From: Hirsutella rhossiliensis
Lineage: Eukaryota; Ascomycota; Sordariomycetes; Hypocreales; Ophiocordycipitaceae
Assembly: GCF_020360975.1 (NCBI RefSeq)
Contig: NW_025408679.1
Span: 1,240,001 to 1,304,000 of the forward strand
Reading direction: 5' to 3'
Length of the DNA: 64,000 nucleotides
A program made the position numbers and the translations under genes. A model generated the notes under the pieces. The model ran no database searches. It saw only the letters and a program-made list of their open reading frames with translations, and was not told the DNA's origin. Positions 19,562-62,280 of this stretch are shown one piece after another (positions within the stretch are counted from its first letter, which is position 1; each line of letters opens with the position of its first letter).

Positions 19562-21172
19562 TATTATAAAGTAAGTAAAGGGTTATACTATAAGTATCTT
19601 TTATTATAATATATTAATAAGTTATATAGGATCTAACTATATACTATACTTACTACTACTAAATATATATTTATATATATAGCTTACCTTACCTTATAAT
19701 AGTATTAGCTAAGGTCTAAGCTAATACCTAAACTTATACTAAGGGTAAATACCTTTATATAAAGGCCTTACCCCTCTCTTTATAAGCGGTCCTTTATAAT
19801 ATTAATCTTATACTTTAACGTATAGCTAAAAGGTAAATAACTTACTAACGCGCCCTTATTATTTCTTCCTCTTAACTATATTATTATTATTAATATTAAT
19901 AGTAGTAGCTATAACTATACTTATAAGTCTTTTAGCTCTTAGCTCTATACTACCGCTTATATATAAGCTAACCTATACCCTTACTAGTTCTTTAAATAAT
20001 TTAATATATCTTTTTCTACCTTATCTTACTTTTCTATTAAGATTAATAACTTTATTAATTATACTCTTACCTTACTAGCTACCTTACCTACTGCCCCCGC
20101 CGCCTTAGTCGCGCCTACCTCTACTTTATACTACCCGCTACCTAGCTTCTTAGCTATTAACTTTACTACTTACGCCGCCGCCGCCCTTACTATACTCTTT
20201 ATTACTAGCCGCCGCGATAATAATAACGATAATAATAATAATAATAAGTATAGGTCCTTACTACCTTCTTTTATAAGCCCTTTTACCCTTATTCTTATAA
20301 GCGTTATTAACTCCTTATATTAATATAAGTGCGCTATAGCTTAAGGCGCTACCTATAATTCCCTTTATATATAGTATACTTTAAAGTCCCTCCCTTACGC
20401 TAACTAAGCTAGCCGCTTTTAAGGTAGCTACTTCCTATATACTTAAGCTAGCTACGCCTATAAGGTTATACCGTTTATCTTTACTTATACTACCGTAGCT
20501 TTAAGCGCCGCGGAGCTAGGTAAGGACTAGAATAAGGTAGAGCGTGCCTTAACCGCTACCGCCGCCGCTTACTATAACTTATAGTTCCTTAAGCGCGCCG
20601 CCTTTATACCTAAATATATAAGCTCCCTTTCCTATACTCTTTATAGCGCTAATACTCTCTTTCTTAAGGGCACTATTACCGCCGCCCTAGCCGCCCCCGC
20701 TACTTTTACCGCCGCCGCTTTTACTACTACGGCTACCGCCGCCGCTGCCGCCGATATCCTTAACGCCGCCGCCGTCGCCGCTTAGCTAGGTAGCTTAGAG
20801 GGCTAGATCCGCGCCCTCGAGGCTAGGGCCGCGCCTTATATTAAGGAGGAGGACGAGGAGAAGGATAAGAGGGAGGATAAGGATAACCGTTTAGTAGTCG
20901 AGACCCCGCTAAAATAAAAGGCCCGCTAGGCCTAGTCTATAAGCCCTTAAGTACGCTTATAAGGGCTAATATAATTTATTTATACTATTATTAACCTAAG
21001 TATACTTTACTTACTATCTATAGTCGCGGTATCTATAATATATACTTATAGCTTATATTAGTATAGCGACCGCCGTAGGCTTACTACCCCGCCGCTTCCT
21101 TATAAGTAAGGTATAGTCTCCTTTATACCTTAAGGTACTAGCTACTTTACTACTAAGAAGGTAGCTTTTCTT
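19562..21172 (-). mobile_element. 3' end fragment of a Gypsy-type element (LTR plus antisense ORF)
   Basis: A probable 209-bp LTR (19562-19770; tattata at the left, cctta at the right) is followed by a pyrimidine run cccctctc, which is a polypurine tract on the minus strand. That makes it the downstream LTR of a minus-strand element. To its right lies a plus-strand reading frame homologous to the antisense frame of Gypsy-1. The fragment is cut at 21172 by a Copia-2 LTR, so pol is missing. The order LTR, polypurine tract, antisense ORF is the same as at 36264-52130 and 60746-62030. The second LTR is not seen, so the LTR limits are tentative. Confidence 0.6.
19940..20935 (+). pseudogene. Antisense ORF of the Gypsy fragment, Cys-motif family
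   Basis: A single frame runs about 330 codons with stops only of the TAA/TAG type expected from Gln codons. An Asn-rich run (D-N-N-N-D-N-N-N) lies near 20215-20250. At 20429-20461 the frame reads Y-F-L-Y, six residues, Y-K-V-I-P: a C-x2-C-x6-C motif with every Cys (TGC/TGT) turned to Tyr. The following segment, with the shared core T-A-x-A-A-Y-Y-N-L then L-K-R and I-P-K, is homologous to the antisense frame in the complete Gypsy-1 (47390-48330, -). The tail is Ala-rich then acidic (K-E-E-D-E-E-K-D-K). The function is unknown; a half zinc-cluster fold is an inference from Cys spacing alone. Confidence 0.65.
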
Positions 21173-21542
21173 ACTAATAAGTAGTATATTAATTATAAAT
21201 AAAATCCTATTTTATAGAGTAAGAGATATTTATTATTTTATAGATTATTATATATTAAATAGGTTACTAGTTATTATATAATTAGGAATAAAGGAATAAT
21301 ACTAGCTTAAAATACTAACTAAGACTTTTTAAGAATATTAGTATAACTAACCTCCTTTAAATATAAATATTAGCGGAACTAAGATACTTCTAGCTATACT
21401 TAAGGTATTATTAAACTCCTTAGTCCTAGGGCTATATAGTAGCTTAAATCTAGTCCTAAAAGGTTCTTCTATTTAGCTATAATTATTTATATAAGGTAGT
21501 ATATCTACTAATAAATAGAGATAGAATTAGTATCTTTAATAC
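21173..21542 (+). repeat. Copia-2 LTR, 5'-truncated
   Basis: Matches the 3' part of 16032-16475 and lacks about the first 80 bases, where it joins the Gypsy fragment. It ends at ctttaata, corresponding to the LTR end ttaaca. Confidence 0.75.
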
Positions 21543-21549
21543 TTCTTAT

Positions 21550-22027
21550 TATTATAAAGTATAGATTAATTTTATAGTTCTTAAAGATATTTCTTAGTAT
21601 AAGGGACCTAGGAAGCTAAAAAACCTAGGTTTAAAGAAGGAGCTAAAAGGAGGTATAAAGAAGAAGGTAGGGGTAAGAGGGGAAGTAAAAGTAGTAATAG
21701 CCTCTTATAGAGGTAGTAAGAGATATAATAGATATACTAGTAATAGCTAGAAAGGAGGGGAAAAACTAGTAAAAAGCTTAGTAGTTAAAAGGATATTAAT
21801 AGCTTCTTTAAGTAAGATCTTCTTTATTAATTAAGATATTAAATAGGTATAAAGAGGGGCGTTAGATAAAGAAAAGAAAGATAATTAAGGTAATATAATA
21901 ATTACTCCCTTACTATAATTACTACCTTTATAAGAATTAAATATCTCTACTTTACCTATCCGACCCCTTACTTTTAATTTTACCTTTATATATTTTATAT
22001 ATACTTTTTATATCTCTCTTTATAAGA
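21550..22027 (+). repeat. Copia-1 solo LTR
   Basis: A complete Copia-1 LTR (tattataaag to tataaga) with no internal region on either side. It lies between two inverted Copia-2 LTRs. The flanking pentamers (cttat and gttaa) do not match, so it may have arisen by recombination rather than a simple insertion followed by LTR-LTR loss. Confidence 0.8.
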
Positions 22028-22458
22028 GTTAAAGTTAATAATTCTATCTTTACTTCCTAATAGATATACTATCTTATATAGATAATTATAGCTAAATAAA
22101 AGAACCTTTTAAGACTAGATTTAAGCTACTATATAGCCCTAAGACTAAGGAATTCCGTAATACCTAAAGTATATCTAGAAGTATCTTAGTTCTACTAATA
22201 TTCGTTTTTAAAGGAGGTTAGTTATACTAGTATTCTTAAAAGGTCTTAGCTAGTATTTTAAGCTAGCTCTATTCCTTCGATTCCTAATTATATAATAACT
22301 AGTAACCCGTTTAATATATAATAATATATAAGATTACGAGTAATTCTTACTCTATAGGATTAGATTTCGTTTATAATTAATATACTACTTATTAGCTTAT
22401 ATAATCGGGAAAGTATATTATAGCTACTTTATTTATAGTAGGAATACTATTCCTTATA
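22028..22458 (-). repeat. Copia-2 solo LTR, inverted
   Basis: The reverse complement of 16032-16475, essentially full length (431 bp), ending ccttata on the + strand. It forms an inverted pair with 21173-21542. It cuts the antisense ORF of the Gypsy-2 copy that starts at 22459. Confidence 0.8.
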
Positions 22459-23102
22459 AATAAGGGCTAAGATAATCTTAATACTTAGCTAAATAAAGAG
22501 TAAGATAACGATAATAGTAATAATAAAGATAGCCGCGATTTAACTCCTCTTACTAACGAACCTAAGAATAGTAATACTAAAAATAAAGGTACTTAGGTAG
22601 TAGTATAAAGCGGTCGCGCTCCTATAAAAAAGTATACTTAATCTAAGGCTAAAGCTTACTTAGTTAAGGCCTAAGGGGTTATCCCTTATAAGCTTTAGTA
22701 TATATATTATTTTAGGATAGTTATTAAGGAGTATAGTATAACTAAGTCTAAGCTTATTAAAGTACTCTCGATTAGCTATATTTTCTTAGGGGGTTCCTTA
22801 ACGCGCTATAAGTAGTATTATAAATATACTATAACTTATAACTAAATAAGTTTCCCTTTAACCTTAAATATTATAATTAATAAGCTAATCTTTCTTAAAG
22901 CCGCTACTTTTATATTTAATAACCTAGCTAATATAATCGCTATTATAAAGTACCTATATAAGCTTAATAAGTTAAAGACTAGTAATAAGGTTACTAAGGA
23001 TAATAGCTTAAATATAAGTATACTTAGTTTTAAGGAGGGTAATTAGCGCTATCTTACTATTATAGTATAGTATTTAGCTAAGGCTTTTAACGCTACTAAG
23101 AT

Positions 23103-23578
23103 TATCGCGAAGCGTAGCCTAATTTCGTAGTTCTTAGAGATATCCCTCGGCACGAGGGACCTAGGAAGCTAAAAAACAGGTTTTAAGGAAGGAGCTAAAA
23201 AGAGGTATAGAGAGGAGGGTAGGGGTAAGAAGGGAAGTAGAAGTAGCGATAGCTTCCTATAGAGGTAGCGAGAGATAAAACGGATATACCGGCAACGGCT
23301 AGAAAGGAGGGGAAAACCTAGTAAAAAGCTCGGTAGTTAAAAGGACATTAGTAGCTTCTTTAAGTAGGATCTTCTTTATTAATTAAGATAATAGACGGAT
23401 ATAAAGAGGGGCGTTAGATAGAGGAAAGAAGAATAATTAAGGCAATATAATAATTACTCCCCTACCTTTATTAATGCCCCCGTAAGAATTAAATCTCTCT
23501 GCCCTACCTATCCGACCCCTTACTTTTAATTTTACCTTCGTATATTTTTATATACTTCTTATATCTCTCTTTACGAGA
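23103..23578 (+). repeat. Copia-1 5' LTR
   Basis: Starts tatcgcgaagcg where the 3' LTR has tattataaagcg; every difference in that stretch is C-to-T or G-to-A. Ends tacgaga. The primer-binding sequence gttataagcctaggagg follows at 23579-23595. Confidence 0.9.
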
Positions 23579-23724
23579 GTTATAAGCCTAGGAGGAATAG
23601 AATTCCTATACCTTCCGGCTACTATAAAAGGCACCTTTCTTATATCCCTTATAGCTTCCTTTTACCCCTCTTACTAGAAAAGCCGATTTTTAACCGACTT
23701 TTCTGCCCCCCCTCTTTCGTAACG

Positions 23725-28900: not shown

Positions 28901-28975
28901 CCTCCTCTATACGCTTACCGGCCTAGGTATTTAGCTTTACCCTTTCTATAAGGGCGGGCTATAGCTAAGGGGGTA

Positions 28976-42066: not shown

Positions 42067-42071
42067 GGTAA

Positions 42072-42257
42072 TATAAGAGTCTTTAACTATTATAGGTAAT
42101 AGGCTTAGGCCGCGGCCTAAGCTATATAGTTACGTATAGAGGGCCGGATCCTATAAGTATAGGGGCGGGCTAGCCGCGTATAGAAGAGCTCTATATAGCT
42201 TATTAATATTATCCTACGGACGGCACCTATATATACGCCTCTGCTTACTCCGTAATA
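42072..42257 (+). repeat. Gypsy-1 5' LTR with 20-bp palindrome
   Basis: 186 bp, tataagagtc to ctccgtaata. It contains the perfect palindrome GCTTAGGCCGCGGCCTAAGC at 42103-42122, repeated in the 3' LTR near 48894-48913. Confidence 0.9.
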
Positions 42258-43540
42258 GTATAAGCTATTAACTAATAGATCTAATAGATATCTCCCTAGA
42301 AAGGGTGCCGCTTCCTTAAGGGAGTACCCCGCTACCCCCTAGGCGGATAGGAAGTATTATAGCTATCCTAGAAGCGATTAGAAGCGCGACGGCTAGCGAG
42401 AAGAACGAGGTTCTCGCTATACTAAGGGAGCCGTCTACGAGACTAGCGTTAACCCCTACGACCTTAGCAATACCGGTTACGGCGGCGGCACTACTAATAC
42501 GGAAGCTACTTCCCTAGCCGACTTAGGACGGTAAGCCTAAGTCCTTCTACTTCTTCCTTAGCCGGCTATAAACGAAGTTTATAATAGACGAGAAATATGG
42601 CCTAAATAGCTATCGTAATATAGCGTGGTATTCGCTCCTCTATACGCTACCGGAGCCCTAGATATAGCGGATCTCCGGATTCTAAGATAAGGGCGGCCCT
42701 AGAGGTAGACGCGACCTATAGGACTTTTTCTAATACCTTATATATACGTTCGGCAACGTATAGGAGCGGGAGAAGGCGTAGGATAAGCTGCGGACCCTTA
42801 AGTAAAGGGACGGGTAGACCTTTAGCGAATTCCTCCCTAACTTCGAAGAGACGCTCTTACGAGTAGCGGGAACTATAGTATAGGAAGATAGCGCGAAGCT
42901 TATATAGTTATAGAACTCGATTACGCCGGCCCTACGGGAGCTACTTATCCTTATAATTATACCTACTAACTATAGCAAGTATATAAGCCGGTTAATAAAG
43001 GTAGTATAAGGCTATAAGTAGACGCCGCGTTTCTAAAAGCTTTATAAGCGCACGCTATATAGCGGTAACGGGATCACCGCCCTTTTATAAGAGGAATAGC
43101 CGACTATCGATACTAACGGAGATACCTTAATATCGGCTACCTATATAGACCGAGCTAAACGCGGTAGGAAGTCGTCTTTAAATATCCCCTATACTATCCC
43201 GCTCTCTAAGTAGCGGGCGAAGTAGGTAATAAGCGAGGAAATCGGGAAAAGGAAGGCTAATAGCCGCTACCTACGTTACGGCGCGTTTATATACTTTATA
43301 TTAAAATACCCCTTCCTTTTAGCTAAGCGGCCTATAGTAGTTTAAGTAGCGAAGATAGAACCGCTCTTTGCTTTAGATAACGAAGAGGACTCCGCTCCCT
43401 TAGGCCTAGAGGAAAAAGAGTAGCTCTAGAGTAAAGACGGGCTCTAGAGCTTTAATTACTAGTACTAGTAAAGGAGAAGGAGGAATTATCCGCCTATATA
43501 GAAAAGGAGCCTACTTTAATATAGGTTATAGTTAATAACT
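42258..43540 (+). pseudogene. Gypsy-1 gag
   Basis: This region lies between the 5' LTR and the protease and is shared with the fragments at 3469-4220 and 4407-5560, so it is a regular part of the family. The frame can be followed in pieces with TAG stops; a clear capsid or zinc-knuckle match is not visible to me. Gag is assigned by position. Confidence 0.6.
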
Positions 43541-46500
43541 CCTTACCCGTCGCCGCCCTTATAGACGAGGGCTACTAGTACTACGCCGTAGTTAACGAGG
43601 CGCTTATACGAGAGATATAAGTACCAGTAGAAAAGATCGCCCTAAGGCGAGTAAAGGGCGCCTTAGGCGCGATAGAGGGTATAGTAATTAAGGGCATTAC
43701 GTAGCTAGCTATAGAGGTCGACGGTTACCGTAAGCTTATCGTAGCTTATATAATCCCTTAACTAGAGTTTCCCTTAATCCTTAGGAAACCCTAGTTATTA
43801 TATATAGAGTTATACTTAGTTCTATACTAAAAAAAGCTATAGTTTAGGCCTATATAACGGTAGGTCCGCTATAACGACGGTTCTATAGGCGTAGGACTAA
43901 GTATACGAGCTTTATACTCGGTATAAGAAGTCCTTGCCTCTATCTTTATAGGAACCGTGCGACGGTTAAAGCGGGAGGAAGGCCGGGCAGCGGCTAATAT
44001 AGCGGTCTACGTAGTTAGCCTAGCGGATATCGATAAGGCCCTCTAAGCAAAGAAGCTAAAGTTGCCCTCTAAGCTATAGTAGTAGATACTAGAGCGCTTT
44101 TACGACCTCCTACCGCTATTTAAGTCCTAGGAAGCGGATAAGCTTAACCTATATAAGCTAGGGGTAGACTATAAGATCGTACTCCGCACCGATAAGAAGG
44201 GGCAGGAACTGCCTATACCGTTTAGACCGCTATATAGTATATTATACGCGGAACTACTAGTGCTAAAGAAGACGCTAAGGGACCTCCTAGATAAGGGTTT
44301 TATTTAAGTAAGTAGCTCTAAAGTAAGAGCGCCGGTCTTATTTATATATAAACTAAGGGGCGGGATACGGTTCTATTACGACTATAGGGCTCTAAACGTA
44401 ATTATAAGGCTAAACCGCTACCCCTTACCCTTAATCTTAGATACGCTCTATAACCTTTTAAAGGTAAAGTAGTTTACGAAGTTAAATATAAAATAAGCGT
44501 TCTATAAGGTATAGATCTTAGAGGGTAATAAGTAAAAGACAGCGTTCTATATATACTATAGCTTATTTAAGTAGCTTATAACGCCCTTCGGCCTCTTAAG
44601 AGCGCCCGCTACCTTCTAGCGTTATATTAATAATATACTTTAGGACTTCCTCGATAAGTTCGCCTCTATATATATAGATAATATCCTTATCTATATAAGC
44701 AGCTCTTATAAGGACTATATATAGAAAGTACGGAGGGTCCTAGAGCGCCTCTAACTTTATAGGCTTTACCTCGACTTAAATAAGTATAAATTCGGGGTTA
44801 AGAGGGTTAAGTACCTAGGCTTTATTATCTACGCTAGCGTAGGTATATAGGCGGATCCTATAAAGATCTAGGCGATTCGGGACTAAGCTGCCCTAACTAC
44901 GTAGATAGGTATACGGAGCTTCTTTAGGTTCGCGAACTATTATAAGATATTTTTTAGGGGCTTCTCCTATATTATAATGCCCTTAAATAAGATTACCGGG
45001 AAGCGGACCGCCTTTTACTAGGGGCCTATATAGGAAGGAGCGTTCCGCACGCTTAAGGACCTATTCTCTTAAGCCCCGGTACTACTCTAGTAGGACTTCG
45101 ACCGGTCTACGTTAGTTAAAGTAGACTATAGCGGCTAGGCACTCGGAGGAACGCTCTCCTAGGAGGTAAATAGGCGGAAGTAACCGGTAGCGTTTTACTC
45201 CTATAAGCTAACCCTAGTAGAGCGGAATTACGCTATTTATAATAAGGAGATACTAGCGATTATTAGCTACCTTAAGCAATAGTAAGCGGAGCTTTAGAGC
45301 TATAAGAGCTTCGAGGTTCTTATAGACTATAGGAACCTTAAGTACTTTATAACTCGCTAGCACCTCTCGGAGCGGTAAGCCCGCTAAGCGGAGTATCTCT
45401 TATACTTTAACTTCTCGATTAAATACCGGCTAGGGCGGGACTCTATAGTCCTAGATATGCTTTCCCGGAGGGATTAAGACTAGCCGACGGGAGCGGATAT
45501 CGAGGCCCGGGATCTATAGCTTATCCCGTAAGAAGCGCTATAGACTTATATAGGAGCTTCCCTAGTAAAGGAAGGCGCGGCGCTAATAGATAAGCCTTCC
45601 CCTATACCTTTACCTTAGCCCGGCGAGGAGGGATAGACCGGCCTAAGGGCGCGTATAGCGTAGGTATTTTAAGATAAGGTCCTCTAGCGCTTATAGGATA
45701 GGACGTTATCTCTAGACTATACCTACGAGAGCGTACGCCGCGCCGTTAAGTCCGGCGCTCGACGCCTCGATCCGAAGCTAAAGCTAAAGGTATAAGTAGC
45801 TAACTATTATATTGACCTACGGGGGCACCTACGTTAGCGGGGGAGACTATAGGTACCGGGCGCGCTATATACTATAGAAGCTAAGGAGAAGGATAGACCG
45901 CTAGAGCTAAATAAACGGAACGAGCTCTAAGGGAAGCTAGTCTAGCTTGTCTATAACTCTAGTATCGTAGGCTACCTAGGTAGGCAGGGCATAATAGTAA
46001 GCCTTACGAGGGATTTCTACTAGCCCCTCTTATAGTACTACGTTCGCCGCTTCCTCTATAACTACGATATCTATAGCTATACTAAGATTTAGAGGGCGTA
46101 GCTTAAAGGGCTACTTAAGTAGCTTCCGGTACCTAACTAGTTTTATACGTATATATAGATAGACTTTATAACGGACCTCCTACTTATAGAGGGCGGCAAC
46201 TACTATATATAGGTAATTAAGGACCGACTTAATAAGTCTATAGTATTAAAGCCGATACCGTCTATAAATATAGAGTCTTATATAGAGCGCTTCCTATAGT
46301 ACTAGGCCCGCTTATATAGCTAGCTAGCCTTTATTATAAGCGATAAGGGATCGAATTAAACTAGCTGCTTTTAGTAGTACTTATACTAGCTACTTTAGAT
46401 TACGTAGCTACTTAGTATAGTATATTACCTATAGACTAACGTAGGGCCTAAGAGGGTTAACTAGGAGGTATAGGCTTACCTACGGGCCGTTATAGCCTAT

Positions 46501-47240
46501 AACTAAGTAGACTAAGACTGTTAGCTCCCCGCGGCCTAACTTACGTTAAATAGTAGACTATATACCTCTATTAAGATAGCCCCTTTCTTTATAACGTATA
46601 GCTTTAAACTACCCTTACTAGTTCCTTTTACCGTAGATATAGTAGTAGAGTAGTATAGTAATTCGTTACTAGAGGGCCGCGCCTCCGCGTTCGTATAAAA
46701 GCTATAGGAGACTACGGATTATTACTAATCCGCGATAGCCGCCGCGGCGTAAGATTAAGAGCGGCACGCTAATAAGACTAGGGCCCTAGTAGATAGGTTT
46801 ACGGTAGGAGATAAGGTATAGCTAGACCTCTATAACTATAGGTCGGCACGGCTAAAGAAGAAGCTTAACTAGCTATACGTAAAGTTTACGGTATAGAGGG
46901 TTATTAGCCTATAGGTTATAGAGCTTAATAGTCTCTTAACGGGGGTCTATAATAAGATTAACGTAGACCTCTTTTATAGAGCCTCCTTTAACCCGCTACC
47001 TAGATAAGAAGTAATAAACGCTTAACCGCCTATAATCGAGGTAGAGGGAGAGGACGAGTTTAAGGTTAAAGAGATATAGGCCGCGCGCTAGAAAAAGGTC
47101 GGTAGGGGGAAACGCTAGGAGGTCCTCGTTAAGTAGCGCGGGTATCTTAACCCTATATAGGAACCTATACGTAAGTTTATAAGAACTATAGCCCTTAATA
47201 AGTTTAAAGCTTTATTTAGAATAGTAGATAAAAATAACGG
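43540..47240 (+). pseudogene. Gypsy-1 pol: protease, RT, RNase H, integrase, chromodomain
   Basis: The protease-like segment (about 43545-43790) has A-A-L-I-D-E-G as its active-site region. RT (about 44160-44830) shows P-x-R-P-L-Y, Y-D-Y-R-A-L-N, T-P-F-G-L and Y-I-D-N at 44671-44682, with the second Asp changed to Asn. RNase H (about 45110-45440) shows K-V-D-Y-S, E-I-L-A-I and D-Y-R-N-L. Integrase (about 45940-46700) has H2C2-like positions with Tyr replacements, then D (about 46162), D (about 46342, S-D-K-G-S-N) and E (about 46464). The chromodomain (about 47038-47180) has E-V-E-G-E-D-E-F-K-V-K-E-I. The stops are TAG at Gln positions. It converges with the antisense ORF downstream. Confidence 0.9.
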
Positions 47241-47359
47241 ACTAGCGGACTACCGATAGTAGCCTAGGCTAGGACTATAAAGTAAGTATAGTAGAGGGGG
47301 CAGTTACGGTAATATAGGCAATATAAGCGTAATAGTATAAGCAGAGATAAAAATAGCGT

Positions 47360-48330
47360 TTATTATAGGGCGGAGCCCTTAGACTACCTAGGCCTATTCC
47401 TTATTATTATTATTATTATTATCTTTATTATTATCGTCTTTATTAGCCTCCTCCTTCTTATTAGCGGCGGCGGCGGTTTCTAGGGCGCTAAGGCGGCCCT
47501 TTAAGCCCGTAAGCTAGTCGGCGGCGGCGGCGGCTCTAGGGGTAGAGGGGCGGCGGCTAGCGGCGGCGGTAGGGGCAGCGGCGGTAGCGGAGGCAGGCAC
47601 GGCTAAGGGGACCGCCGATAGGGCGACGGAGGTAGTATCCCTAGCGCCGGGTATATTAAAGGCGAAAATAAGGGAGCAGAGGAGTAGGACTTACTTAGGT
47701 ATAAGGCCCTATCGCTTAAGGGCGCGGAGGTTATAGTAGGCGGCGGCGGCGGCGGTAAGGCGCTTCTTAGTAGCCCCCTGCGCCTACCTATACGAGCTGG
47801 CCTTCTAAGCCGACGCCGTAGCGAGCAAGATAGGAGGCGCCGCCTTATAGGCGCGGCCGGCTCGCGCGCACTAGTAGCAGCTGCCGCCGCGGCGGCGCCC
47901 GGCCTAGTCGGAGTAGTCGAGCTCCTACGACGCATAACGTATATAGGGGGCCGAGCGGGCGGCGCCGGCCTATACTTAGCGCTTATACTATAGGAGGTTA
48001 GCGGATAACGTCTATTACGCTTACCTAACTACGGACTTATAGGGGTAGCGGAGATAGAGGCGGGGGCCGAGGGGCCGGGCGTTACGGGTAGCGGCGGGGA
48101 TAGCGTCGTTACCCTAAGGGGCGACGTAAGAGCGAATAGCGTAGTAGAGGCGGCGGCGGCGGCGGTAGGAGCGGTGGCAGCGGCGCGGGCAGGAGCGGCG
48201 GCAGCGGCGGAGTTATCGTCGGCCGCGGCTAGCACGGCGTCGACGAACGACTCCGTACGCTCTAAGAAGGATGAGGTAGGAGAGGGAGAGGCGGATATAT
48301 CTATCGCGGAAGTTAGTACGACGGAATATA
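47360..48330 (-). pseudogene. Antisense ORF of Gypsy-1, Cys-motif family
   Basis: A minus-strand frame runs for about 300 codons between pol and the 3' LTR. In-frame stops are essentially all TAG or TAA at Gln-type positions, which argues that this phase was once translated. At 47833-47883 (reading leftward) it has S-C-Y-stop-C, six residues, Y-K-A-A-P-P: a C-x2-C-x6-C motif whose first two Cys survive and whose third is Tyr. It continues with A-A-A-A-Y-Y-N-L-R-A-L-K-R and I-P-K, an Ala-rich stretch, a coiled segment L-K-G-R-L-S-A-L-E, and a K/E/D then Asn-rich tail coded by (TTA)n at 47401-47430. It is homologous to the ORF at 19940-20935. The function is unknown. The short unbroken frames here (47603-47935, 48029-48235, 48174-48428) are in other phases. 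Confidence 0.7.
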
Positions 48331-48575: not shown

Positions 48576-48863
48576 TACTACTTAAGGTAGAGGGGACGGG
48601 CAACCTAAGGCTTACGTAGGTCTAGACTAGCCGCCGGCTACCTAGGGGCGTATATAATAGGTTATGCCCTTATTTAAATAGCTAGCCGGCTAACGAGTAT
48701 AAAGCTAGGTCCCGGCTGCCTAGGCTAACGGGCGCGGGGATAATAGGGCTAGTAGGGCCGGCCCTATTAACGGGAAAGGGCAGGGAAGAGCCCGCGGTAT
48801 AGGCCTAATTATATAGGAGCCGTTAATAGGGCAGCGCTACGCCGCGCTCGAGGGAGGGCATTA

Positions 48864-49049
48864 TATAAGAGCCTTTAACTATTATAGGTAATAGGCTTAG
48901 GCCGCGGCCTAAGCTATATAATTACGTACGGAGGGCCGGATCCTATAAGTATAGGGGCGGGCTAGCCGCGTATAAAAGAGCTTTATATAGCTTATTAATA
49001 TTATCCTATAGATAATACCTATATATACGCCTCTACCTACTCCGTAATA
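48864..49049 (+). repeat. Gypsy-1 3' LTR
   Basis: 186 bp, nearly identical to 42072-42257. It is preceded by the purine tract gagggagggca and followed by GGTAA. Confidence 0.9.
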
Positions 49050-49054
49050 GGTAA

Positions 49055-50911: not shown

Positions 50912-52128
50912 ATGCTAAAGAAGATAAAGAACTATAACGCTAATTTCCTATACTATATATAAGAGTAGGTAGTAGTAGGTTTGCCCTTAAAGTATAAGCG
51001 ATTAGCTTAAAAGTCTTATAGCGACGTTAGTTCCCCTTTAGTAAAGAAAGCTAAGAAAGGTATAAGGGAATCCTAGTCTTAAGAGACTTCTAGTTTAAGA
51101 CCTAACGTTAGTAAAGGTCGTGCCTTTATTACCCTACTAAATACCTTAACTCTAACTATTAATAAGCCTACCTTTATAGGCTAGGAAACTTATAAGTCTA
51201 TTACCCTTATTAATAATACTAATACTAGTAAGGAGATCGTACTTAGGCGCTCTTAGGTAAGTACTAATAATCTAGCTACTTTATCTTAATAGGGCGGCTC
51301 TAGCTAATAAGAGATTATCGCTTAAGCCGCTCCTTAAAATAAGTAGGCTAATATTAACGATAAGGCCTAGCTAAATAAGGGCTAAGACTATCTTAATACC
51401 TAGCCGAATAAGGGCTAAGATAACGATAATAGTAATAATAGAGATAGCCGCGATCTAACTCCTCTTACTAATAAACCTAAGAACGGCGGCGCCGGAGATA
51501 AAGGCACCTAAGCGGCGGTATAAGGTAGTTACGCTCCTATAAAAAAGTATACCTAATCTAAGGCTAAAGCCTACCTAGTTAAGGCTTAATAGGTTATCCC
51601 TTATAAGCTTTAGTATATATATTATTTTAGGATAGTCGTTAAGGAGTATAGTACGACCGAGCTTAAGCCTATTAAGGTACTCTTAATTAGCTATATTTTC
51701 TTAGGGGTTTCCTTAATATACTATAAGTAGTACTATAAACGTTCCGCGACCTATAACTAAGTAAGTTTTCCCTTAACTTTAAATATTACGATTAATAAGC
51801 TAATCCTTCTTAAGGCCGCTACTCTTATATCTAATAACCGGGCTAATATAGTCGCTATCGTTAAGTACCTACGTAAGCTTAATAAGCTAAAGACTAATAA
51901 TAAGGATACTAAGGACGATAGCTTAAACGTAGGCATACTTATTTTCGAGGAGGCTAATTAGCGCTATCTCGCTATTATAGTATAGTATTTAGCCGAGGCT
52001 TTTAACGCCGCCGAGATAATATATTATAAGTCCTTTAGGACTATAGGTATATAGAAGTCTACTATCGTAAGTTTTATCTAACCCTTTTATTAGCGACCGC
52101 CTAATAATATACTAGGTCGAGCGTGCTA
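50912..52128 (+). pseudogene. Antisense ORF of Gypsy-2, Cys-motif family
   Basis: The ATG at 50912 opens a single phase of about 400 codons that contains only TAA/TAG stops at Gln-type positions and no visible frameshift. It is antisense to Gypsy-2 pol and lies between the chromodomain and the 3' LTR. Two short direct repeats code for N-K-G-x-D near 51380-51415. A D-N-D-N-S-N-N-R-D-S-R-D segment follows, and at 51722-51757 Y-K-x-Y, six residues, Y-N-x-V-S-F-P, i.e. C-x2-C-x6-C with every Cys turned to Tyr. The C-terminal part is helical with K-Y-L-R-K-L-N-K-L-K. A second copy of the same frame is at 22459-23102 and 29453-29700. About 200 bp right after it are missing compared with that copy. 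The function is unknown. Confidence 0.65.
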
Positions 52129-52129
52129 A

Positions 52130-55100
52130 TAAAGATAGGTCTTAATATAGAGGAAAAAGAAAGAGCGAAGGATAAGGTAGTTTTAGTATTTCTAAAGGTA
52201 TTTAGTATAGTAGAGGGGGCGCCTTAGTTAGTTCCCGCTATACTAGTAAAGAAGAGGGGTAGTCGGAAGTAATAAATAGGTTTTATCTTTCTTTTATTTA
52301 GTTATAACTATCTTTCTCTCCTTTATTATTAAAGTCTTAATAGAGTTATAGTTTAGTTTTATTTTCCTTAATAATATTTAATAGGTAGTATAAATAGTTT
52401 TCCTTTATTCTCTTATTTTACTATTTTATATATAGTTATAGGATATTTAGGTATACTAATATATTAACGAGTTAGTAGCGATTTAGTAGGGATTCGTTAC
52501 CGATTTAATAGCGTCTCCTTATACTAATAAGTTTCCTTACCTTACTTAGTCTTACGCCTCTTTTTCTTAGTTAAGCGAGTAGTATATTCTTTAATAAGGT
52601 CTTAGCTATTCGCTATATCTTTAGTATTAACCTATTAGTTATACTTAGCTAGCTATCCTTTTTATTTAATAAGGAAAAAGGTATTACTCTTAGATCTCTT
52701 TTAGCCTTTAATTTATTAGACTTCCTATTTACCTTTATTATCCTTTAAGTTTAGTATTAATAGGGTTTCGCTATCTTTATAGGTGCCTTTTCTCTCCTTT
52801 TATAGCTCTAAGAGATTAATATAGAAAACGTTATAAGGGCGTAAGTACTTTTTAGGGAGTATAAAATAATATACTTACTTTTAAATAGCTTATAGGACCT
52901 AAAACGGTCTAATATACTTAGGTAAGAGTTTTCTTTTTTTATCTTTAAAGTATAAGTTCTTTATCGATAGTACTATAAGGTCTTTTACTTTTAGTATAAG
53001 CGGTTAGTGCCTTAAATCGTAGTATTTTACTTACGATTTAATAGCCTTTCCTTAGTATTCCTTAAGCCTCTTTTATAGCTCTTATAGCTTAGTAACTCTT
53101 ACTCTTACTTTAAGTACCCCCCTCTAAATAATATTATCCTTAGTATTAATATAAAAGTTTAGTTAGTAACCTATTAACGCTTTATTAAGTAATAACCTAG
53201 TTATTATATTCTTTATATTATTATTTATATATTAAGTAATATATAAGAGTAACGCTTAGTTAGTTTATTTTAAGTTAGTAAGTATCTTAAGTAGTACTAT
53301 ATAGCTTAGTTTATTCGTTTTATTTACCTATTAGTTTATAGGTAAAATACTATTAATAGCTTATATTTTACTTATAAGATAAAATAGCGATCTAACTAAA
53401 ACTTACTTATAAATAAGGACCCTTTATCTAAGATAATGCTTTTTAAAGGTCTATATACTAATTTAACTTAGTAATAGAATAATTCTATTAGCTCTAGAGT
53501 TATTATTATCTTAGAGATAGGAAAGAAAAGGTAATACTTAGTATATCGGTCTATAATTACTAAGATTATATTAGCGTTTTATTTATTATACTATAATTTA
53601 GGTAAACTTATAGTAAAGTCTATTAATAATTCTTCCTATAATAATATAAGATATAGTAATAATTATATAGTACTATAAGGGCGATGCTTCTTAGATACTA
53701 TACCTTAATATACTAAGTATAACTAAACGTATTTATTTATATTTTTCGTTATTTTATCCTAGTAAAAGTTCCTTACTAGTAGTTTACTAGTACGTTAAGA
53801 GCTAAAGTATCTTACTAATAGATCGTTATAAAAGAGCTATATTAGCTCTTACTATAGGGCTACCTTTAAAGGCACTATAATATAACCCTTTTATAGTAGT
53901 AGTCTATTTAAGCGTATTAACTAAAAACCCTTCTCTTTTAAAAAGTCTTTAGTCTCCTTTAGCCTATTAATCGCTATATTAACCGACTAAGTACGTTTTA
54001 ATAACTCTAGTAATAGTTTTAGAACTTCTACTATATAAACCTTTATATAGTAAGCTACTTCTTTAGCGGTCTTCCTTAAAAGTAACTATTTATAACTAGC
54101 TCTCTCTTTAGCTTAATTAGCTAATTATTTAGGTCTTATACCTAAATTATTATAGTTTCGCTATAAATAAGCTTATATATTTTCCTTATATAAAAGCGCT
54201 TTACTACGCTTATATTAACTTAAGGTTAAGTATCTCTTTACCTATAAAAACGCCTTATTATTTCTCTATATAGATATAGTATTAATAGTAGCTAGCTTCG
54301 CTTATAGCTTTAGTAATAGTTCTATAGATAGAGGCTTCTTACCCTTATATCTAGGCATTCTTAATAGCGCGTTTACTAGGTTTAATTTACCTATATAATA
54401 CTTAATTATAAAGTTAAATAGTACTAAATATATATACTATCTTACTTACCTCCTATTTAAGGAGGTCTAGTATATAAACGTCTAAAGGTTATAATAGTCC
54501 GATAATACCTTTACTTTATATACTACCCCTTTAATATAATATTGCTAGTATTTAAATAACTTAATAATAGCGAATAGTTCTTAGTCTAGAATACTATAAT
54601 TAAGTTTATTTTTAGTAAACTTCCTTAATTAAAATATAATTAGATAGTAACGCCCTTTATTATTAGGTTAAGAGATAATTCCTACTATCGCGAATTACGA
54701 TATATCTATTTCGATATAAATACGTCTTTCTAGATTATAATATTAAAGGAGTAAGGCTCCTTAAAAAGTATCCTTAAGAGCTTAAAACGCTACCCGTTTA
54801 GTAAGGTTTAGCTCTATACTCCCTAGCTTCTTTTTATTCTTACTCCCTTTTAGTAGTATAGTTAAGGGTGCTATAACTCTAGAGTACCTATATATAAATC
54901 GACGGTAAAAATTATAAAACCTAAGGAAAACCTAAATATTATAGTAGGTTATAAGTTTAAGCTATTAAGCTATTACCTTTACCTATTAAGGGTCTATCGA
55001 TACCCTATTAATAGATAAAATAAACTTAAGAAACTTAACTAACTATTAATAAAAGGTATACTTTAATAGTTTTATATAAAGCTTTATAGCCCTTAGCCTT

Positions 55101-56777
55101 TCTATTACTTATCTTAAGTATTTAGTATATTCTTTTCTTATCTTAAAGTATATAAGGATATCGTTAAAGTAAACTATATAGATTATATTTATAAGCCCCT
55201 TAAGCGCTTAATAGATATAGCTTTAAAACGTAGCTAGTATATTAATAAGCTTAAAGGGTATTACTAGGTATTTAAAATATCTATAATATATTTAGAAAGC
55301 GGTCTTTTATTTATCTCCTTCTTAAATTTAAATATATTAATATATATTTTATATATTAATCTTAGAAAAATACTTAGCTCCTTAATAGTAGTTAATAATC
55401 TCCGAAATAAGGGGTAAAGGGTATTAATTCTTTTATATAACCCGGTTAACTCCTTAGTAGTCTATATATAGCTATAAGGTACTATCCTTTTTTAGAATAA
55501 AAAGGATAGGCGCTTTAGCTAGGCTCTTTAACTCTTAGATTATTTTCCTTTTTATCGCGTCTTAGATCTAGTCGCGTAATACTTAGAGTTCCTTTTATAA
55601 TAAAGTATAAATCGGTCTATAAGGGGGTTCTATATTAAGGATTAAATTAATTAAGTAATCTATTTCTTTTCTAGCTAGTAGTAAGTTAGATTTATTAGCT
55701 AAGAAAGTATCTTTAAAGTAGTAGAGAGTTAATAGGATTTTAGCTTATTCTTCTTATAAAATCCCTTTATCTTTATCTTTATTTAATAGCGGGATTAGCT
55801 TCGGGTTAAGCGCTATTATATATACCCTTACTTTATTCTTATATTCCTAAAGGAATCTATAAGGGTTCTATAGGGTTTTACTACTTAGTTAATACTTAAA
55901 CTATTACTATTATTTCTATAAGATAATATAGATATATTTATATTTTAAGGTAGTAACTAATAAAAGGATTAATACTTAATCGTTTAGCGTTAACTTATTG
56001 GTACTAATATAGAAATAAGTAATTATCTTTTTAATGCCTTTTATATTTATTATTTAGAGCGGTATTAACTATACTCTATACTCCCTTACCTTACTATTAT
56101 TAAGCCCTAATAACTTAAGGTATAATAGCGCTACTTATAGTAATCCCTACTATTAAGTAAAGTATATATTTATAAGGTTAATAGTATTATAAGTATCTAA
56201 GTATAAAGGGACTTTAGTAGGGTTTCGCCTTAATATCGTTATAGGAGTTTTAAGTAACTATCTTATAAGTATTAAGTTTACTAAGGGGGAGGCGTTTACT
56301 TTAATATCTTACCTTTTCCTTATTTTACGGTATTAAGTCTAAGAGTCTTTACTAAGGTTTCTACCTTTAAAGAATTAGTATATTCTATAAATAGGTATCC
56401 TAGCTTATTATATTAAAAATATATAATTCCTAATTAAGTAAAAGATCCTCTTCCTTAATAACGTCCCTTAGTTTAGCCCTTAGTAGGTATATCGCTAGCT
56501 TACTAGTTATTAGTTAAATTAATAGTATTTCCTTAATAATTTAACTTAGCTTATTAGCCTCTTTAATTCCTTCCCTTATATATACTACCTTAGGGTATAG
56601 TATTATTTCTATTCCTAGTTTCTTTAAGGGTAAAAGTAGTATTAATACGCCGCTTCTTATTAATAGTAGTATCTTAATATTATTAAGCGACTTATATAAG
56701 CTCTTCCTATTAGTAGGTATAAATAGGTATTAAGTAGAGGTTAATTTAGTCTTAAAGTTATAGCTCTAACTTAGCGA
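52130..56777 (-). pseudogene. Gypsy-2 pol: RT, RNase H, integrase, chromodomain
   Basis: Reading right to left: RT (about 55720-54900) has P-P-Y-R-P-I-Y, A-P-I-L-F and Y-F-N-D at about 55160-55171, with the first Asp now Asn. RNase H (about 54700-54400) has L-N-Y-S-I-L-D and E-L-F-A-I-I. Integrase (about 53700-53150) shows I-I-D-R-Y-T-K, S-I-I-L-D-K-G-S-L-F and a QTN-like block. V-S-L-L-E-P-Y-K-like and chromodomain-like sequence (S-Q-D-L-I-K-E-Y) lie at about 52870-52540. The protease is expected near 56050-56250 but is not securely recognised. Broken by many Gln-type stops. Confidence 0.83.
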
Positions 56778-56782
56778 AAAAT

Positions 56783-57479: not shown

Positions 57480-57484
57480 AAAAT

Positions 57485-58317
57485 ATAAGAGTATATACCT
57501 TTTCTAATAAGCGTTTAAAATACCTCTCTAAGGAGTTAAAGTATAAGCTAAACTTTAGGAGGGACTAGCTTTCTTATTAGCGAGCCTCCTTTAATTACAT
57601 CGCTAATAGTATCTCCTTATTTATAGTATCCTTAATTAAGATAAGTATCTATTCTTTAAAGTATACTTAATCTATACTATATTTAGTTTAGTTAATCGGC
57701 GTCTATTCTTTAAGGTATTAGCGCTATCTTACTTTATAGTCGCTATATATATAATTTACTATATAAAGGATCTTTATTTCGTCGCGATAAAAACGTCTAA
57801 GCGCTGCCTTAAAAGCGTCCTTTAAATCGTAAGTTTAGTTTAGACGTTTCTATATATTAGTAGGTTAAGATAATTAAGCGATATTTTTAATCTTAACCTC
57901 GCCTATATAACTACCGTTTAATTTAAGGGAGTAGGACCGTTAACGCTTCCCTAAATAAATAGCGATAGTACTAGCGCGTTTAGTAATTTCCTCCTCTAAT
58001 TATATAACGCGATATTATAAGCGTTTCGTCTCCTCTAGCTCTTTAACCCGCGATTATAAAGCTATAAGCTTTTCCTTATAAGATAGTTATCTTACGCCTA
58101 TAGGTAGCGATATCTTCGATATAGTTATAATACTATCTATAGTAAGGGTCTATTCTAAGGATATATGTTCTTATTCTTTATCTCTTAAGTAAATATTTAA
58201 TATATATAATAAAGAGGCCTTAACTAGTTAACTACTACGTCGCGCTATAGGAGCGTTATATAGTTTTCTTTAAGTAGCTATCTTTACTAAGTAACTAAAA
58301 AAGGAAGCTTTAGAAAT
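57485..58317 (-). pseudogene. Gypsy-2 gag
   Basis: A minus-strand frame from about 58310 leftward follows the 5' LTR. A coiled N-terminal part (K-E-L-E-E-T-K-R) is followed by a capsid-like region with D-L-K-D-A-F-K-A-A-L-R-R-F-Y-R-D, Y-F-K-E and Y-F-N-S-L-E-R-Y-F, then a basic end near 57490. Stops are of the Gln type. Assigned as Gag by position and pattern. Confidence 0.68.
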
Positions 58318-58575
58318 TATAAGGGAATACGTATTATAGTACGATTAGTTAGGTAGTAAAGATAGCTAGAGGTACTACGCTATATATATTATATTCTCCT
58401 TATTATAAGACTAAAGCTTATAAGAAGAGGGATTTTTTCCTCTTCCGTTAAAATAGTAAGTAGTCTATAATATATAAGCGGGGTAGGTATAATTCCCTAC
58501 TAATACCCTACTAATATATTAGTACTATATACCTAAGTGCTTTATTAGCCTATACCTCTTAGTAGCGCTCTTATA
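58318..58575 (-). repeat. Gypsy-2 5' LTR
   Basis: 258 bp, tataaggg to gctcttata, followed by the CTCTT duplication. Pairs with the split LTR at 36264-37223. Confidence 0.88.
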
Positions 58576-58580
58576 CTCTT

Positions 58581-60700
58581 AGTTTTTCCTTAGCTATAGT
58601 ATTTATATTTAATAGTCTTTAGGCCCTTTATTTATATACCCTATTATATACTTAGCTTATATAAAGCTAGGGGGCCTAGGTAACTAAGTCGTACGTATTA
58701 AAGAAGACCGTTTCCTTAAGCTAGTAAAAGAGGGTCCTTTATAGTAGACCTATTCCTCTTAGTAGGGAAAGCTAACTTCTTAAGTAGTTCCTTCTTATAA
58801 ATAGGTCGGAATTTAAGGATAAATTAACCGAATTTTTCCTCGATAAGCCTAATAGTTTAATTCTTTTAAACTAGCCTTATAGGCTTAGACATTATATCCT
58901 AGAAGATTCCTTCCTCTTAAAGAAAGCGGAAGGAAATTAAGCTTATTAAAAATCAAGGGTAAAAAGCTACCCTTTTTCGTCGAAGAATTTATATAAACCT
59001 ATTAAGTAATTTTATTATAAAATTTACCCTTCTATATCCCTCTATCTATATAGTTAATTCCCTAGAATAAGGTATTCCCTCTATACCTTCTTAAAGGACC
59101 GGAATCGTAAGAGTATATTATAAATATTAAGGGAAGTACTAGAGTTAAGGATAGCTGATTTTTATAGGGGATAATCGGAGGGCTCTAATAGTTAGTATTA
59201 GCCTTATTAATCTATAAGGAAGATAAAGGCCGGATTTAATATACTAATAACCTTTCCTTAAATTTACGGCTTAAATAAGGGTAGCGGCGTTAGTTACTAT
59301 TTCTTAATAATCTAAATCTTATTTATCTTCTTCTATAATAAGGGGTTATCCTTAAGAGACTATTATATCGTTTCTTATAGCCTCTTTAAAGGGTTAAATC
59401 CTTTAGGTCGGTTTTCCTTAAAGACCTACTAGTATTATAATAACTAATAGCCTAGGGATTTATAGGCTAAGTAGCTATTTCGTTTAGTCTATTATTTCTT
59501 CGAGGAATCCTTGTCCCGATTTAAAAGGTCTACTTAAAAACCCCCCCTTTTTACCCCTTATTACTAATTTTAACGAGGTTCGATTTTAACTAGTTTCTTA
59601 ATTTTTTAACTAATAGACTAAAAGGTCTATTATAGGACTAGCTATACTAGTCTAACTAATAGGACCGGGCCTAGAGTAGAAGGCAGAGCCGGGGCCGGGA
59701 CTAGGGCAGCCGTTAAAAACAAGGTTAAGGCTCTTAAGAGAGGAGGAGCTAGAAGGGCAGTAGCTATAATAGTAGTAGTAGTAGGAACCATAGTAATAAG
59801 GGCTATAATAGCTATAGGGGTAGTAGGTCGAGCTATCTAGGTTAAGTACTAGCTATAAAGGAATAAGACTACTTACTATTATACTTTAATAGCTTCTTTA
59901 TTTAGTTCCTAGCTAGCCTCTTAAAAGATAGTTAAGTAACTATTACTAATAAGCTTTATTAGTAGAGATATATCCTATAGCTACTAGCTAGAAAGAGCTT
60001 TTATAAGGAAGTATTAGTTAGCTTCCTTAAGAATTTCTTCTTACTTAGCTAGCTATAAAGAAGCTAGTAAGTTCCTAGTAAAAAAGGCTCCTAGGTATAT
60101 TATATAAGTATTCTTAATATAGTTAGTTATATAGCCCTTTAAGGGAGCTATTAAGGTTTCGAGCTTTAAAAGCTACTACCTAAGAGTCTCTTCCTCTTAA
60201 AAAGAGATTAGCTTTATAGTACTAACGGATTTTATTATTACTATATAAGTAGTAGTTAGTAGCTTTATCTTATAAAGGTATTCCTTATAGTAACTCTTAT
60301 AGTTACCTAAGGTAGTAGAAAAAGCTCTTTATTATATAGAGGTTCGCTTAAAGAAGAGGGAAGCTCCCTTTATAAATTCTATTACCCTAGGATAAAGAAA
60401 GGGCTTAAGAGGGTCCTACTTATTAAAGAAGACTAAATTATAAGTAGTTTAATTTATACGAGCCTATAGCTCCTTTACCTACTTATCTTAATCTTAAGGC
60501 TTTATAAGAATCGTCTTATAGACTATAGGGGCAGTAAAGGAGTCGTTTTTCGATATTATTATAAAAGAGGGGGTAGAAAGGTTAGTTAAAAATCGGCTTT
60601 TTTAGTAAGAGGGGTAAAAGGAAGCTATAAGAGATATAAGAAAGGTACCTTTTATAATAGCTAGAAGGTATAAGAGTACTATTCCTTCTAAGCTTATAAC
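58581..60700 (-). pseudogene. Copia-1 copy 5, gag, protease and integrase N-half
   Basis: Resumes exactly where 36258 left off. It matches 23579 to about 25700 of the complete Copia-1 in reverse. The gag start near 60555 has lost its ATG. A primer-binding site lies beside the LTR at about 60683-60700. Confidence 0.83.
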
Positions 60701-60745
60701 TCTTATAAAGAGAGATATAAAAAGCATATATAAAATATATAAAGG
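60701..60745 (-). repeat. Copia-1 copy 5, 5' LTR, cut
   Basis: The first 45 bases (outer end tcttata) match the other Copia-1 LTRs. The rest is displaced by Gypsy-3 and would resume right of the window. Confidence 0.8.
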
Positions 60746-61002
60746 TATTAAGGGCCGGCGTATACTTAGTATAGTAGTATAGGGCCGAATAATTATTTAT
60801 TTAAAGCTAAGGAGAAAGGAGGAAAACTTTATTTTAGTCGCGACGGTTATCTATCTTCCTTAGTCCTTAGCTTAACCTATATTTAGGTGCTATTTAGCCT
60901 AAGTTTAGGTTAAGCTCTACCTATATATAGGTCTACTTTAGCCCGACTTTAGTACGGTCGCTATAGTATAACCTTAGCCTTTTATAGGCATAGCCCGTAA
61001 TA
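60746..61002 (-). repeat. Gypsy-3 3' LTR (probable)
   Basis: Delimited by the break in the Copia-1 LTR on the left and the taccccc polypurine-tract complement on the right. It contains three 12-bp near-palindromes of the type cctaNNNttagg between about 60868 and 60932. The limits are inferred from a single LTR. Confidence 0.55.
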
Positions 61003-61219
61003 CTACCCCCGCTCTCTCCCTCTTATTAGTAGTGCTCCCGTTCCTCTCTTACTGCCTTTCCGTTATCGCTATCCCTTTTTTCTTAGCGCGCGTAGTCGCT
61101 TCCTTCCGCCTTACGCTCGCCCTATCCCTCTATACCCCGCCCTTTTATACGCCCGTTCTACCCTCTCCTTCCCTCCTCTACGTATATACCCCTATACCTT
61201 ACTAACTATACGCGTGCCC

Positions 61220-61320
61220 CGCCGCGTATAAATACCCCTTTTCTATCCCCTCTCCCTCTTCCTTTCTTTTTCCTCCTTTAAGCTTTACTCCCTCCGCGCG
61301 CGCGCCCTTACTCTACCTAA
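61220..61320 (+). promoter_or_regulatory. Probable promoter of the Gypsy-3 antisense ORF
   Basis: gcgtataaataccc (about 61225-61238) is followed by about 60 bases of nearly pure pyrimidine (61239-61290) and then a (cg)n run. This is the same TATA plus CT-block layout as in Gypsy-1 at 48500-48575, pointing into the antisense ORF. Confidence 0.5.
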
Positions 61321-61324
61321 CTTC

Positions 61325-62010
61325 TATCGCCGCGCCGCGCTATATTATAACTACCGCGGGCCCTCGCACGCCCGCCGGCTTCTCTACTCTACGTAGCGGT
61401 ACCCCGCCTCCTAGCACGCCGGGCGACTATACTCTACCGCCTTTACGCTAGTCGACGCGTCCGCCTATATCTCTTAGTAAGCGTAGCGCGACCTATAGTA
61501 CTACTATACGGCGGCTACCTTATCTCGCCTATATAGGCCGAATAGCGTTACCGAGCGTCGAGATATAGTATAGTGCCTATTAAAATTAAGCGTCGCCGCG
61601 TACTTATAACTACTTTACCTACGCCTACGCTAAATTACGCTACCTTCCCGTTTATTACTCTCCCTTAACTTTATTCGATAGGACGCTAATATAATAGTAG
61701 TATATTAGGGATACGATCGCTGCTACTAACGCCCTCTAGGACTATACGTCCTAAAAGACGTTTAACGACTACTAAAGCGACCTTTATATATATACTCCGT
61801 TCCCCCTTTAACCTTATCCTACTATTTATCTCTAACTATCGTTTTAATATACTAAGCTTACCCGCGCTACTATATTTACGCGTTAGGCCTAAACGTACCT
61901 TAATATCTTAAAGTAATTAAGCGGTAGTTAAGGGGCGTTTATAGTTAGTTAAAATTAAGTTAGTATCCTTAGTACGTCTTACTATATCTATATCTTATTT
62001 TATTATATCT
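61325..62010 (+). pseudogene. Antisense ORF of Gypsy-3, Cys-motif family
   Basis: A plus-strand phase of about 230 codons lies between the Gypsy-3 LTR and its chromodomain, antisense to pol. Its stops are of the TAA/TAG Gln type. The N-terminal part is Ser/Thr/Pro-rich. At 61611-61643 it reads Y-F-T-Y, six residues, Y-L-P-V, i.e. C-x2-C-x6-C with all three Cys turned to Tyr, then a helical part with I-R-D-T-I-A-A-T-N-A-L and T-R-x-A-x-T-Y-L-N-I-L-K. Other phases are also fairly open here; this one was chosen for its amino-acid composition and the motif. The end is uncertain, near 62010. The function is unknown. Confidence 0.55.
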
Positions 62011-62280
62011 TACCCTTATCCTTATCCTTATTTATCCTTTGTTGCTATCTATCCTATATCTATCCCCTATCTATCTTATATTATTTCCTTTTAGTACTAT
62101 AGTTCTTTTTTATCCTTTCCTTATCCTTTAACGAGCGTCTCTTATCTCCTACCTCCTTCTCTTTCTCCCCCTTCTATCCTTTATTTCCCTTTCCTTATCC
62201 TCCGCCCTCCTCTTTATCCCTTTCTCTTACCCCTCCTTTATTATTCTCCCTTACGTTTCCCTACTATCTCTCGAATCCCT
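62011..62280. other. Gypsy-3 intergenic stretch between convergent ORFs
   Basis: C/T-rich on the + strand, with low-complexity tatcctt-type repeats. I see no further coding signal. It is the convergent junction of the antisense ORF and pol. Confidence 0.5.

What the first reader, a model, noticed from the sequence alone, without database searches (positions are those of the whole stretch)
19562..62030. A shared antisense gene with a C-x2-C-x6-C motif between pol and the 3' LTR in every Gypsy family present
Seen: four unlike frames, at 19940-20935, 22459-29700 and 50912-52128 (same family), 47360-48330, and 61325-62010. All are antisense to the pol of their Gypsy element and all lie between chromodomain and 3' LTR (for the first, next to the LTR of a pol-less fragment). 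Each carries C-x2-C-x6-C, mostly as Tyr through TGC/TGT to TAC/TAT, followed within 3-6 residues by Pro. In every case the in-frame stops are Gln-type, as expected if this phase was coding before mutation. Known: extra ORFs, some antisense, occur in a few plant Gypsy lineages, and C-x2-C-x6-C is the first half of a Zn2Cys6 cluster. Inference: the fungal Gypsy elements here carry a conserved cargo gene, perhaps a small zinc-binding regulator of the element or host.
Basis: partly seen in the sequence, partly recalled or inferred. Interest (0 to 1): 0.9.

Follow-up and report, generated by a model that had tools for sequence, protein, structure and literature searches.

The report
Antisense zinc-cluster gene in fungal retrotransposons
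Some retrotransposons of this nematode-killing fungus carry a backwards-facing extra gene near one end; in one well-preserved family it encodes a small protein that looks like a fungal zinc-cluster regulator, while in the mutation-ruined copies of this window only a partial trace of such a gene can be made out.

Summary
The window (Hirsutella rhossiliensis, RIP-saturated) holds Gypsy relics. The motif is present in all four claimed frames and these lie antisense to pol. But read through Tyr it is cheap (131 sites in six frames), and 'Gln-type' stops are not frame-specific. Families A (42071-49050) and C (19562-21170) are homologous and share a six-site, Zn2Cys6-like spacing; four of A's six sites read TGY in some of 15 copies. 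Against it, A versus C shows no codon-position constraint in that frame (37/33/39 transversions) where pol does (56/27/111). B and D are undecided. 'Every Gypsy family' fails genome-wide: one family has its LTR right after pol. Outside the window the idea holds: a little-mutated family, E, has an antisense gene between chromodomain and 3' LTR, with relatives across Sordariomycetes, six Cys in 72 of 76 aligned proteins, a coiled coil and purifying selection. Its Cys-domain model finds only Zn2Cys6 DNA-binding domains in the PDB (11 of 11, each weak). E is not shown to be homologous to A/C. Antisense genes in fungal Gypsy elements are known (brtn); I found no zinc-cluster product in print. A self-regulator analogous to HTLV-1 HBZ is my inference.

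The parts
42071..42258 (+). Family A, 5' LTR piece (repeat partner of 48863-49050)
   Evidence: 92.6% identical repeat of 188 nt
44329..47241 (+). Family A pol (RT, RNase H, integrase, chromodomain end), broken by RIP
   Evidence: (RVT_1, RT_RNaseH)
47397..48062 (-). Family A antisense frame homologous to the family C frame; 16 stops in 47397-48330
47835..47945 (-). Family A six-site Cys/Tyr pattern x2-x6-x11-x2-x6 with Pro
48863..49050 (+). Family A 3' LTR piece
20246..20815 (+). Family C antisense frame homologous to family A
   Evidence: opposite-strand pol next to it in 8 of 9 other copies
20366..20473 (+). Family C six-site pattern x2-x6-x10-x2-x6 with Pro; all six sites TAY in 10 of 10 copies
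53276..55513 (-). Family B pol pieces (RT 54305-55513, integrase 53276-53794)
51614..51772 (+). Family B weak candidate: triads at 51614-51649 and 51722-51754, 24 residues apart; TGY at one site in 1 of 10 copies
62177..63784 (-). Family D pol end
61569..61649 (+). Family D candidate: triads at 61569-61607 and 61611-61643, one residue apart; no TGY in 10 copies

Best explanation
Some chromodomain Gypsy families of Hirsutella rhossiliensis carry, or carried, an accessory gene on the antisense strand between pol and the 3' LTR. In the well-preserved family E the product is a protein of about 200 residues: a short N-terminal helix, a six-cysteine domain with Zn2Cys6-like spacing and predicted fold, a long coiled coil with a highly conserved LRKQKKxWFEKMMRAVxRGID stretch, and a loose tail. 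I think it works as an element-encoded dimer that holds zinc and acts in the nucleus on the element's own transcription or chromatin, as the antisense HBZ protein does for HTLV-1. Shown: position, strand, six cysteines and selection on the protein in family E; weak but specific structural likeness. Inferred: zinc binding, dimerisation, nuclear place, target, regulation. In the window, A and C are relatives of each other with the same kind of six-site pattern and are probably relics of such a gene; B and D are undecided.
Against: No codon-position bias between A and C in the frame (37/33/39; eight comparisons all flat) although pol shows it (56/27/111) (P 0.32). Each structural and Pfam match is below significance: best Foldseek E 0.42, best PF00172 E 0.03, and other families, mostly coiled-coil ones, match members with lower E. 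The basic patch between the second and third Cys is mostly absent. E and A/C show no profile match; E has no match in the window. No enrichment of CGG pairs in an E LTR. Some E copies are frameshifted. No expression data.
Confidence: 0.45

Rival explanations
1. In the window the motif is a by-product of RIP: loss of CpA/TpG turns much of the DNA into Tyr and stop codons, so Y-x2-Y-x6-Y turns up in many frames; the A-C likeness reflects related 3' DNA of related elements, not a gene.
For: 131 three-site matches in six frames; stop types alike in all frames; A-C similarity in several frame pairs, 129 bits for the claimed pair and 119, 118, 118, 118 for the next; flat codon-position test; B and D TGY in 1 of 10 and 0 of 10 copies.
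Against: Six sites in register between A and C, TGY at four of six A sites, strict six-site form 3 against 0.05 expected (pattern written after the fact), and a real antisense six-Cys gene in another Gypsy family of the genome.
Confidence: 0.35
2. The antisense protein is real but is not a transcription regulator: a zinc-stabilised coiled-coil protein used in particle assembly, nucleic-acid chaperoning or integration targeting.
For: Little basic patch for DNA contact; no CGG pairs enriched in an E LTR; the most conserved stretch is in the coiled coil, not the Cys domain.
Against: The Cys domain model resembles DNA-binding domains only; antisense placement would give a transcript apart from gag-pol (inference).
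Confidence: 0.3
3. The antisense transcript, not the protein, matters: it makes double-stranded RNA for silencing.
For: PMC7264820 discusses this as a possibility for antisense ORFs of plant elements (passages seen).
Against: Codon-level selection and a protein family in many fungi for E.
Confidence: 0.08

Closest known systems
brtn, antisense gene of Boty-like Gypsy elements of Botrytis cinerea (Zhao et al. 2011, Virology; seen only as cited in PMC8365987, PMC7264820, PMC4227169, PMC5987419, passages)
   Same: Additional gene in fungal Gypsy elements, antisense to gag-pol, between pol and 3' LTR (PMC7264820), function not known
   Different: Whether BRTN has the six-Cys domain could not be tested: its sequence and paper are not held, and no Botrytis protein is named in the listed hits
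Zn2Cys6 (Gal4-type) binuclear cluster regulators of fungi, PF00172
   Same: Six-Cys spacing, predicted local fold and a coiled coil behind it
   Different: Below Pfam significance, basic patch mostly missing, encoded by a retrotransposon
HBZ of HTLV-1 (abstract start of PMC6950816)
   Same: Antisense gene of a retroelement whose product has a coiled-coil dimer region (bZIP, by name) and acts on LTR transcription
   Different: No sequence relation claimed; bZIP, not a zinc cluster; the regulation is not shown here
Antisense additional ORFs of plant LTR retrotransposons (Grande gene23, RIRE2, Retand, PvRetro13; PMC7264820, passages)
   Same: Antisense between pol and 3' LTR; function not known; nuclear location for gene23
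   Different: Other hosts; that paper says no clear similarity to database proteins, with an SMC domain for PvRetro13

Membership tests
Zn2Cys6 binuclear cluster (PF00172) | Six Cys spaced about x2-x6-x5..12-x2-x6..8 (spacing rule recalled) | tested here: met
   72 of 76 aligned family E proteins; 108 of all 132 fetched proteins, fragments and the unrelated P0089 included
Zn2Cys6 binuclear cluster (PF00172) | Match to the curated Pfam model | tested here: not met
   20 of 76 members match, best E 0.03; none at E 0.001 or below. Not filed as a member.
Zn2Cys6 binuclear cluster (PF00172) | Binuclear-cluster fold | tested here: inconclusive
Zn2Cys6 binuclear cluster (PF00172) | Basic residues between second and third Cys (recalled) | tested here: not met
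   Only one column is mainly basic (R 55%, K 16%); the first is E in 66% (73 rows)
Zn2Cys6 binuclear cluster (PF00172) | Binds two zinc ions and DNA | not testable with these tools
   Needs the bench
Antisense additional gene of Boty type (brtn) | Antisense, between pol and 3' LTR | tested here: met
   Family E: antisense frame after the pol stop and before a purine-rich stretch and an LTR-like end (5' LTR not fetched)
Antisense additional gene of Boty type (brtn) | Sequence homology with BRTN | not testable with these tools
Ty3/Gypsy chromovirus | RT-RNase H-integrase pol | tested here: met
   A: RVT_1 and RT_RNaseH; natural pol matches in A, B and D
Ty3/Gypsy chromovirus | C-terminal chromodomain | tested here: inconclusive
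   Seen by eye (recalled pattern) at the natural pol ends of L043-L046; not scored by a profile

The most novel reading that the evidence does not exclude
A whole class of Gypsy chromoviruses of Sordariomycetes, including the window's A and C and the distant family E, encodes an antisense zinc-cluster/coiled-coil regulator taken long ago from a host transcription factor: a fungal counterpart of HBZ, with the antisense strand serving as a self-control gene.
Probability: 0.3. Interest if true: 0.78.

Novelty: new variant of a known kind. Interest (0 to 1): 0.6.

Why it matters
Antisense genes of LTR retrotransposons are known in plants and in Boty, but the review whose passages I read (PMC7264820) reports no clear protein similarity for them beyond an SMC domain in one element. 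A zinc-cluster-like product under selection, lying as 'hypothetical protein' in many fungal genomes, gives a testable molecular function and would explain a recurrent unnamed family of fungal annotation. It would be an example of a retroelement that encodes a transcription-factor-like protein on its antisense strand.

Tried and rejected
Rejected: 'in every Gypsy family'. In L043 a 233-nt repeat, identical at both ends of the element, starts 3 nt after the last sense codon of pol; its relative L045 has about 400 nt more there, with no six-Cys frame in the scan. Rejected as evidence: stop-codon type; transversions within a family, too few; dN/dS among close E copies, 0.49-1.21 for the pairs listed, muddled by frameshifts and decay after insertion. 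Led nowhere: Pfam on the three minus frames of 51000-60999 and all six frames of 60701-64000, 0 families each, and on five family A copies; PDB sequence search with A6, 0 hits; Foldseek with the full E model, 5 hits, none a zinc cluster (the VIA list is led by coiled-coil chains); CGG-pair test of one E LTR, everted pairs 2 against 1.46 expected; pattern searches for copies with Cys codons, 0 matches each; paper searches for Zn2Cys6 or zinc-cluster antisense LTR genes and by gene name, 0 papers. The homologue search scored only the 7994 candidates sharing most words and found one protein. Row L014 was given on the wrong strand and row L012 in the wrong frame; neither alignment was used further. 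In one search the copies were not yet turned to one strand; one search replaced it. For A6, 76 of the 131 family E proteins fetched were aligned; fragments and near-duplicates were left out.
Full report
Setting. The window is G000:C13:1240001-1304000 of an 81.8 Mb assembly. A protein found with the window's own frame is named Hirsutella rhossiliensis HRG_003835 and lies on a contig of 8,340,697 bases, exactly the length of G000:C3, so I take the organism to be Hirsutella rhossiliensis (Hypocreales; a nematode parasite, recalled). RIP is extreme: (CA+TG)/(AC+GT) runs from 0.00 to 0.46, at most 0.18 in 62 of 64 bins, with TA/AT 1.37-2.46. No ORF of 150 residues is open.

Anatomy. Family A spans 42071-49050 with a repeat at both ends; its pol is on + at 44329-47241. 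Family B has RT at 55513-54305 and integrase at 53794-53276 on -; family D has a pol end at 63784-62177 on -. Family C is pol-less here, but in 8 of 9 other fetched copies the adjacent DNA encodes, on the opposite strand, a pol end 41-51% identical to A's. Copies of each family lose similarity abruptly beyond the 3' end.

Is the motif more than chance? [C/Y]x2[C/Y]x6[C/Y] occurs 131 times in the six frames against 68 +/- 10 in 40 dinucleotide shuffles; with Pro 3-6 residues behind it, 24 against 10 +/- 3.5. The six-site form with Pro occurs 3 times against 0.05; two of the three are A and C in the claimed antisense frames, the third (55278 +) lies opposite B's RT. The six-site rule was written after A and C had been seen, so this number flatters. 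No match has Cys at all three positions.

Copies. Each region search scored 40 copies; I read 10 of each, and 8 further A loci, of which 5 showed the pattern. In A, TGY appears at four of the six sites in at least one of the 15 copies. In C all six sites are TAY in 10 of 10 copies, which neither helps nor hurts. In B one site is TGC in 1 of 10 and another is TTT in 1 of 10. In D the three sites are TAY in 10 of 10, and the upstream triad in 10, 10 and 9 of 10; its two triads are only one residue apart, unlike a Zn2Cys6 cluster. Stop codons do not single out the claimed frames.

A and C. Profile comparison aligns the two frames over 163 columns with the six sites in register (probability 98.9, E 3.8e-17). 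The DNA itself is related, however, and other frame pairs also match (129 bits in the claimed pair, then 119, 118, 118, 118). The strongest evidence against a gene here is the codon-position test: between A and C, pol has 56/27/111 transversions at positions 1/2/3 (two other copies 56/28/107 and 46/22/92), the antisense frame 37/33/39 and similarly flat in eight of eight comparisons (31/26/38, P 0.32). So a shared pattern is present, but selection on the frame is not shown.

A true antisense gene elsewhere in the genome. Among six natural pol loci fetched, L044 has an antisense frame with six Cys just after the chromodomain; the other five have none by the same scan of the 7.5-7.9 kb held. L044's own frame is shifted within the gene, and several other copies are shifted too; L055, L056 and L058 read through most of it. 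The 14 fetched family E loci are little mutated (TA/AT 0.63-1.11 over the loci), though 7 of 71 matches carry many TAG/TAA stops. The gene lies between the pol stop and a purine-rich stretch followed by what reads as a TG...CA LTR ending where copies stop matching (the 5' LTR was not fetched). In two named relatives (Colletotrichum truncatum P0091, Gaeumannomyces avenae P0111) the annotated protein starts upstream with residues that read like the same purine-stretch/LTR junction (2 of 132 proteins), a hint of the same placement there. Family E has 88 relatives by single-sequence search and 175 by profile, 120 of them listed, from 7991 candidates scored. Those with a species name are hypothetical proteins of Sordariomycetes such as Pyricularia, Colletotrichum, Fusarium, Metarhizium, Cordyceps and Chaetomium (class recalled); some metagenome rows bear automatic names such as seryl-tRNA synthetase; one listed protein (P0056) has a precomputed Pfam domain, PF13094.

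Selection. E against a second subfamily of the same genome: 108 codons, pS 0.74-0.75, pN 0.22-0.24; changes by codon position 28/22/61 (L055-L070) and 30/23/61 (L055-L071). A third pair, L055-L072, includes a shifted stretch (pN 0.30; 34/32/61). The gene does not overlap pol, so the signal is not borrowed from it. Among close copies the ratio is near 1, as expected after insertion.

Not universal, not shown to be one gene. Family L043, whose pol matches A's at 39%, has a 233-nt repeat, identical at both ends of the element, starting right after the pol stop codon: no antisense gene fits. E and A/C show no profile match and E has no match in the window.

Mechanism. Most likely an element-encoded, coiled-coil, zinc-cluster-like nuclear protein acting on its own LTR or chromatin. 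HBZ of HTLV-1 is the nearest working analogy (abstract start). A simple CGG-pair test of one E LTR found nothing, so the target is open.

Print. brtn (Zhao et al. 2011) already established an antisense gene in Boty-like elements; I saw it only as cited in PMC8365987, PMC7264820, PMC4227169 and PMC5987419 (passages). Searches for a zinc-cluster antisense gene listed no paper whose title or abstract start describes one; most subscription papers are not held.

Noticed in passing
P0089 (HRG_003835), related to window 47397-48330: A public gene model of this species is made from the antisense region of a family A copy; it covers residues on both sides of the six-site pattern and leaves the pattern itself out.
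   Followed up: partly
L055-L068: Many little-mutated family E copies differ by small frame-shifting indels, either decay or errors of a long-read assembly.
   Followed up: no
genome G000; L041-L046 against the window: RIP-saturated families and families with almost no RIP live in one genome; the L043 element has identical 233-nt end repeats, so it is young.
   Followed up: no
window 55278-55373 +: A third strict six-site Cys/Tyr pattern with Pro lies opposite B's RT; probably chance.
   Followed up: no
L041, L042: Open frames near these pol pieces look by eye like a PIF1-type helicase (L041) and a hAT transposase end (L042), suggesting nested elements; names recalled, not scored.
   Followed up: no
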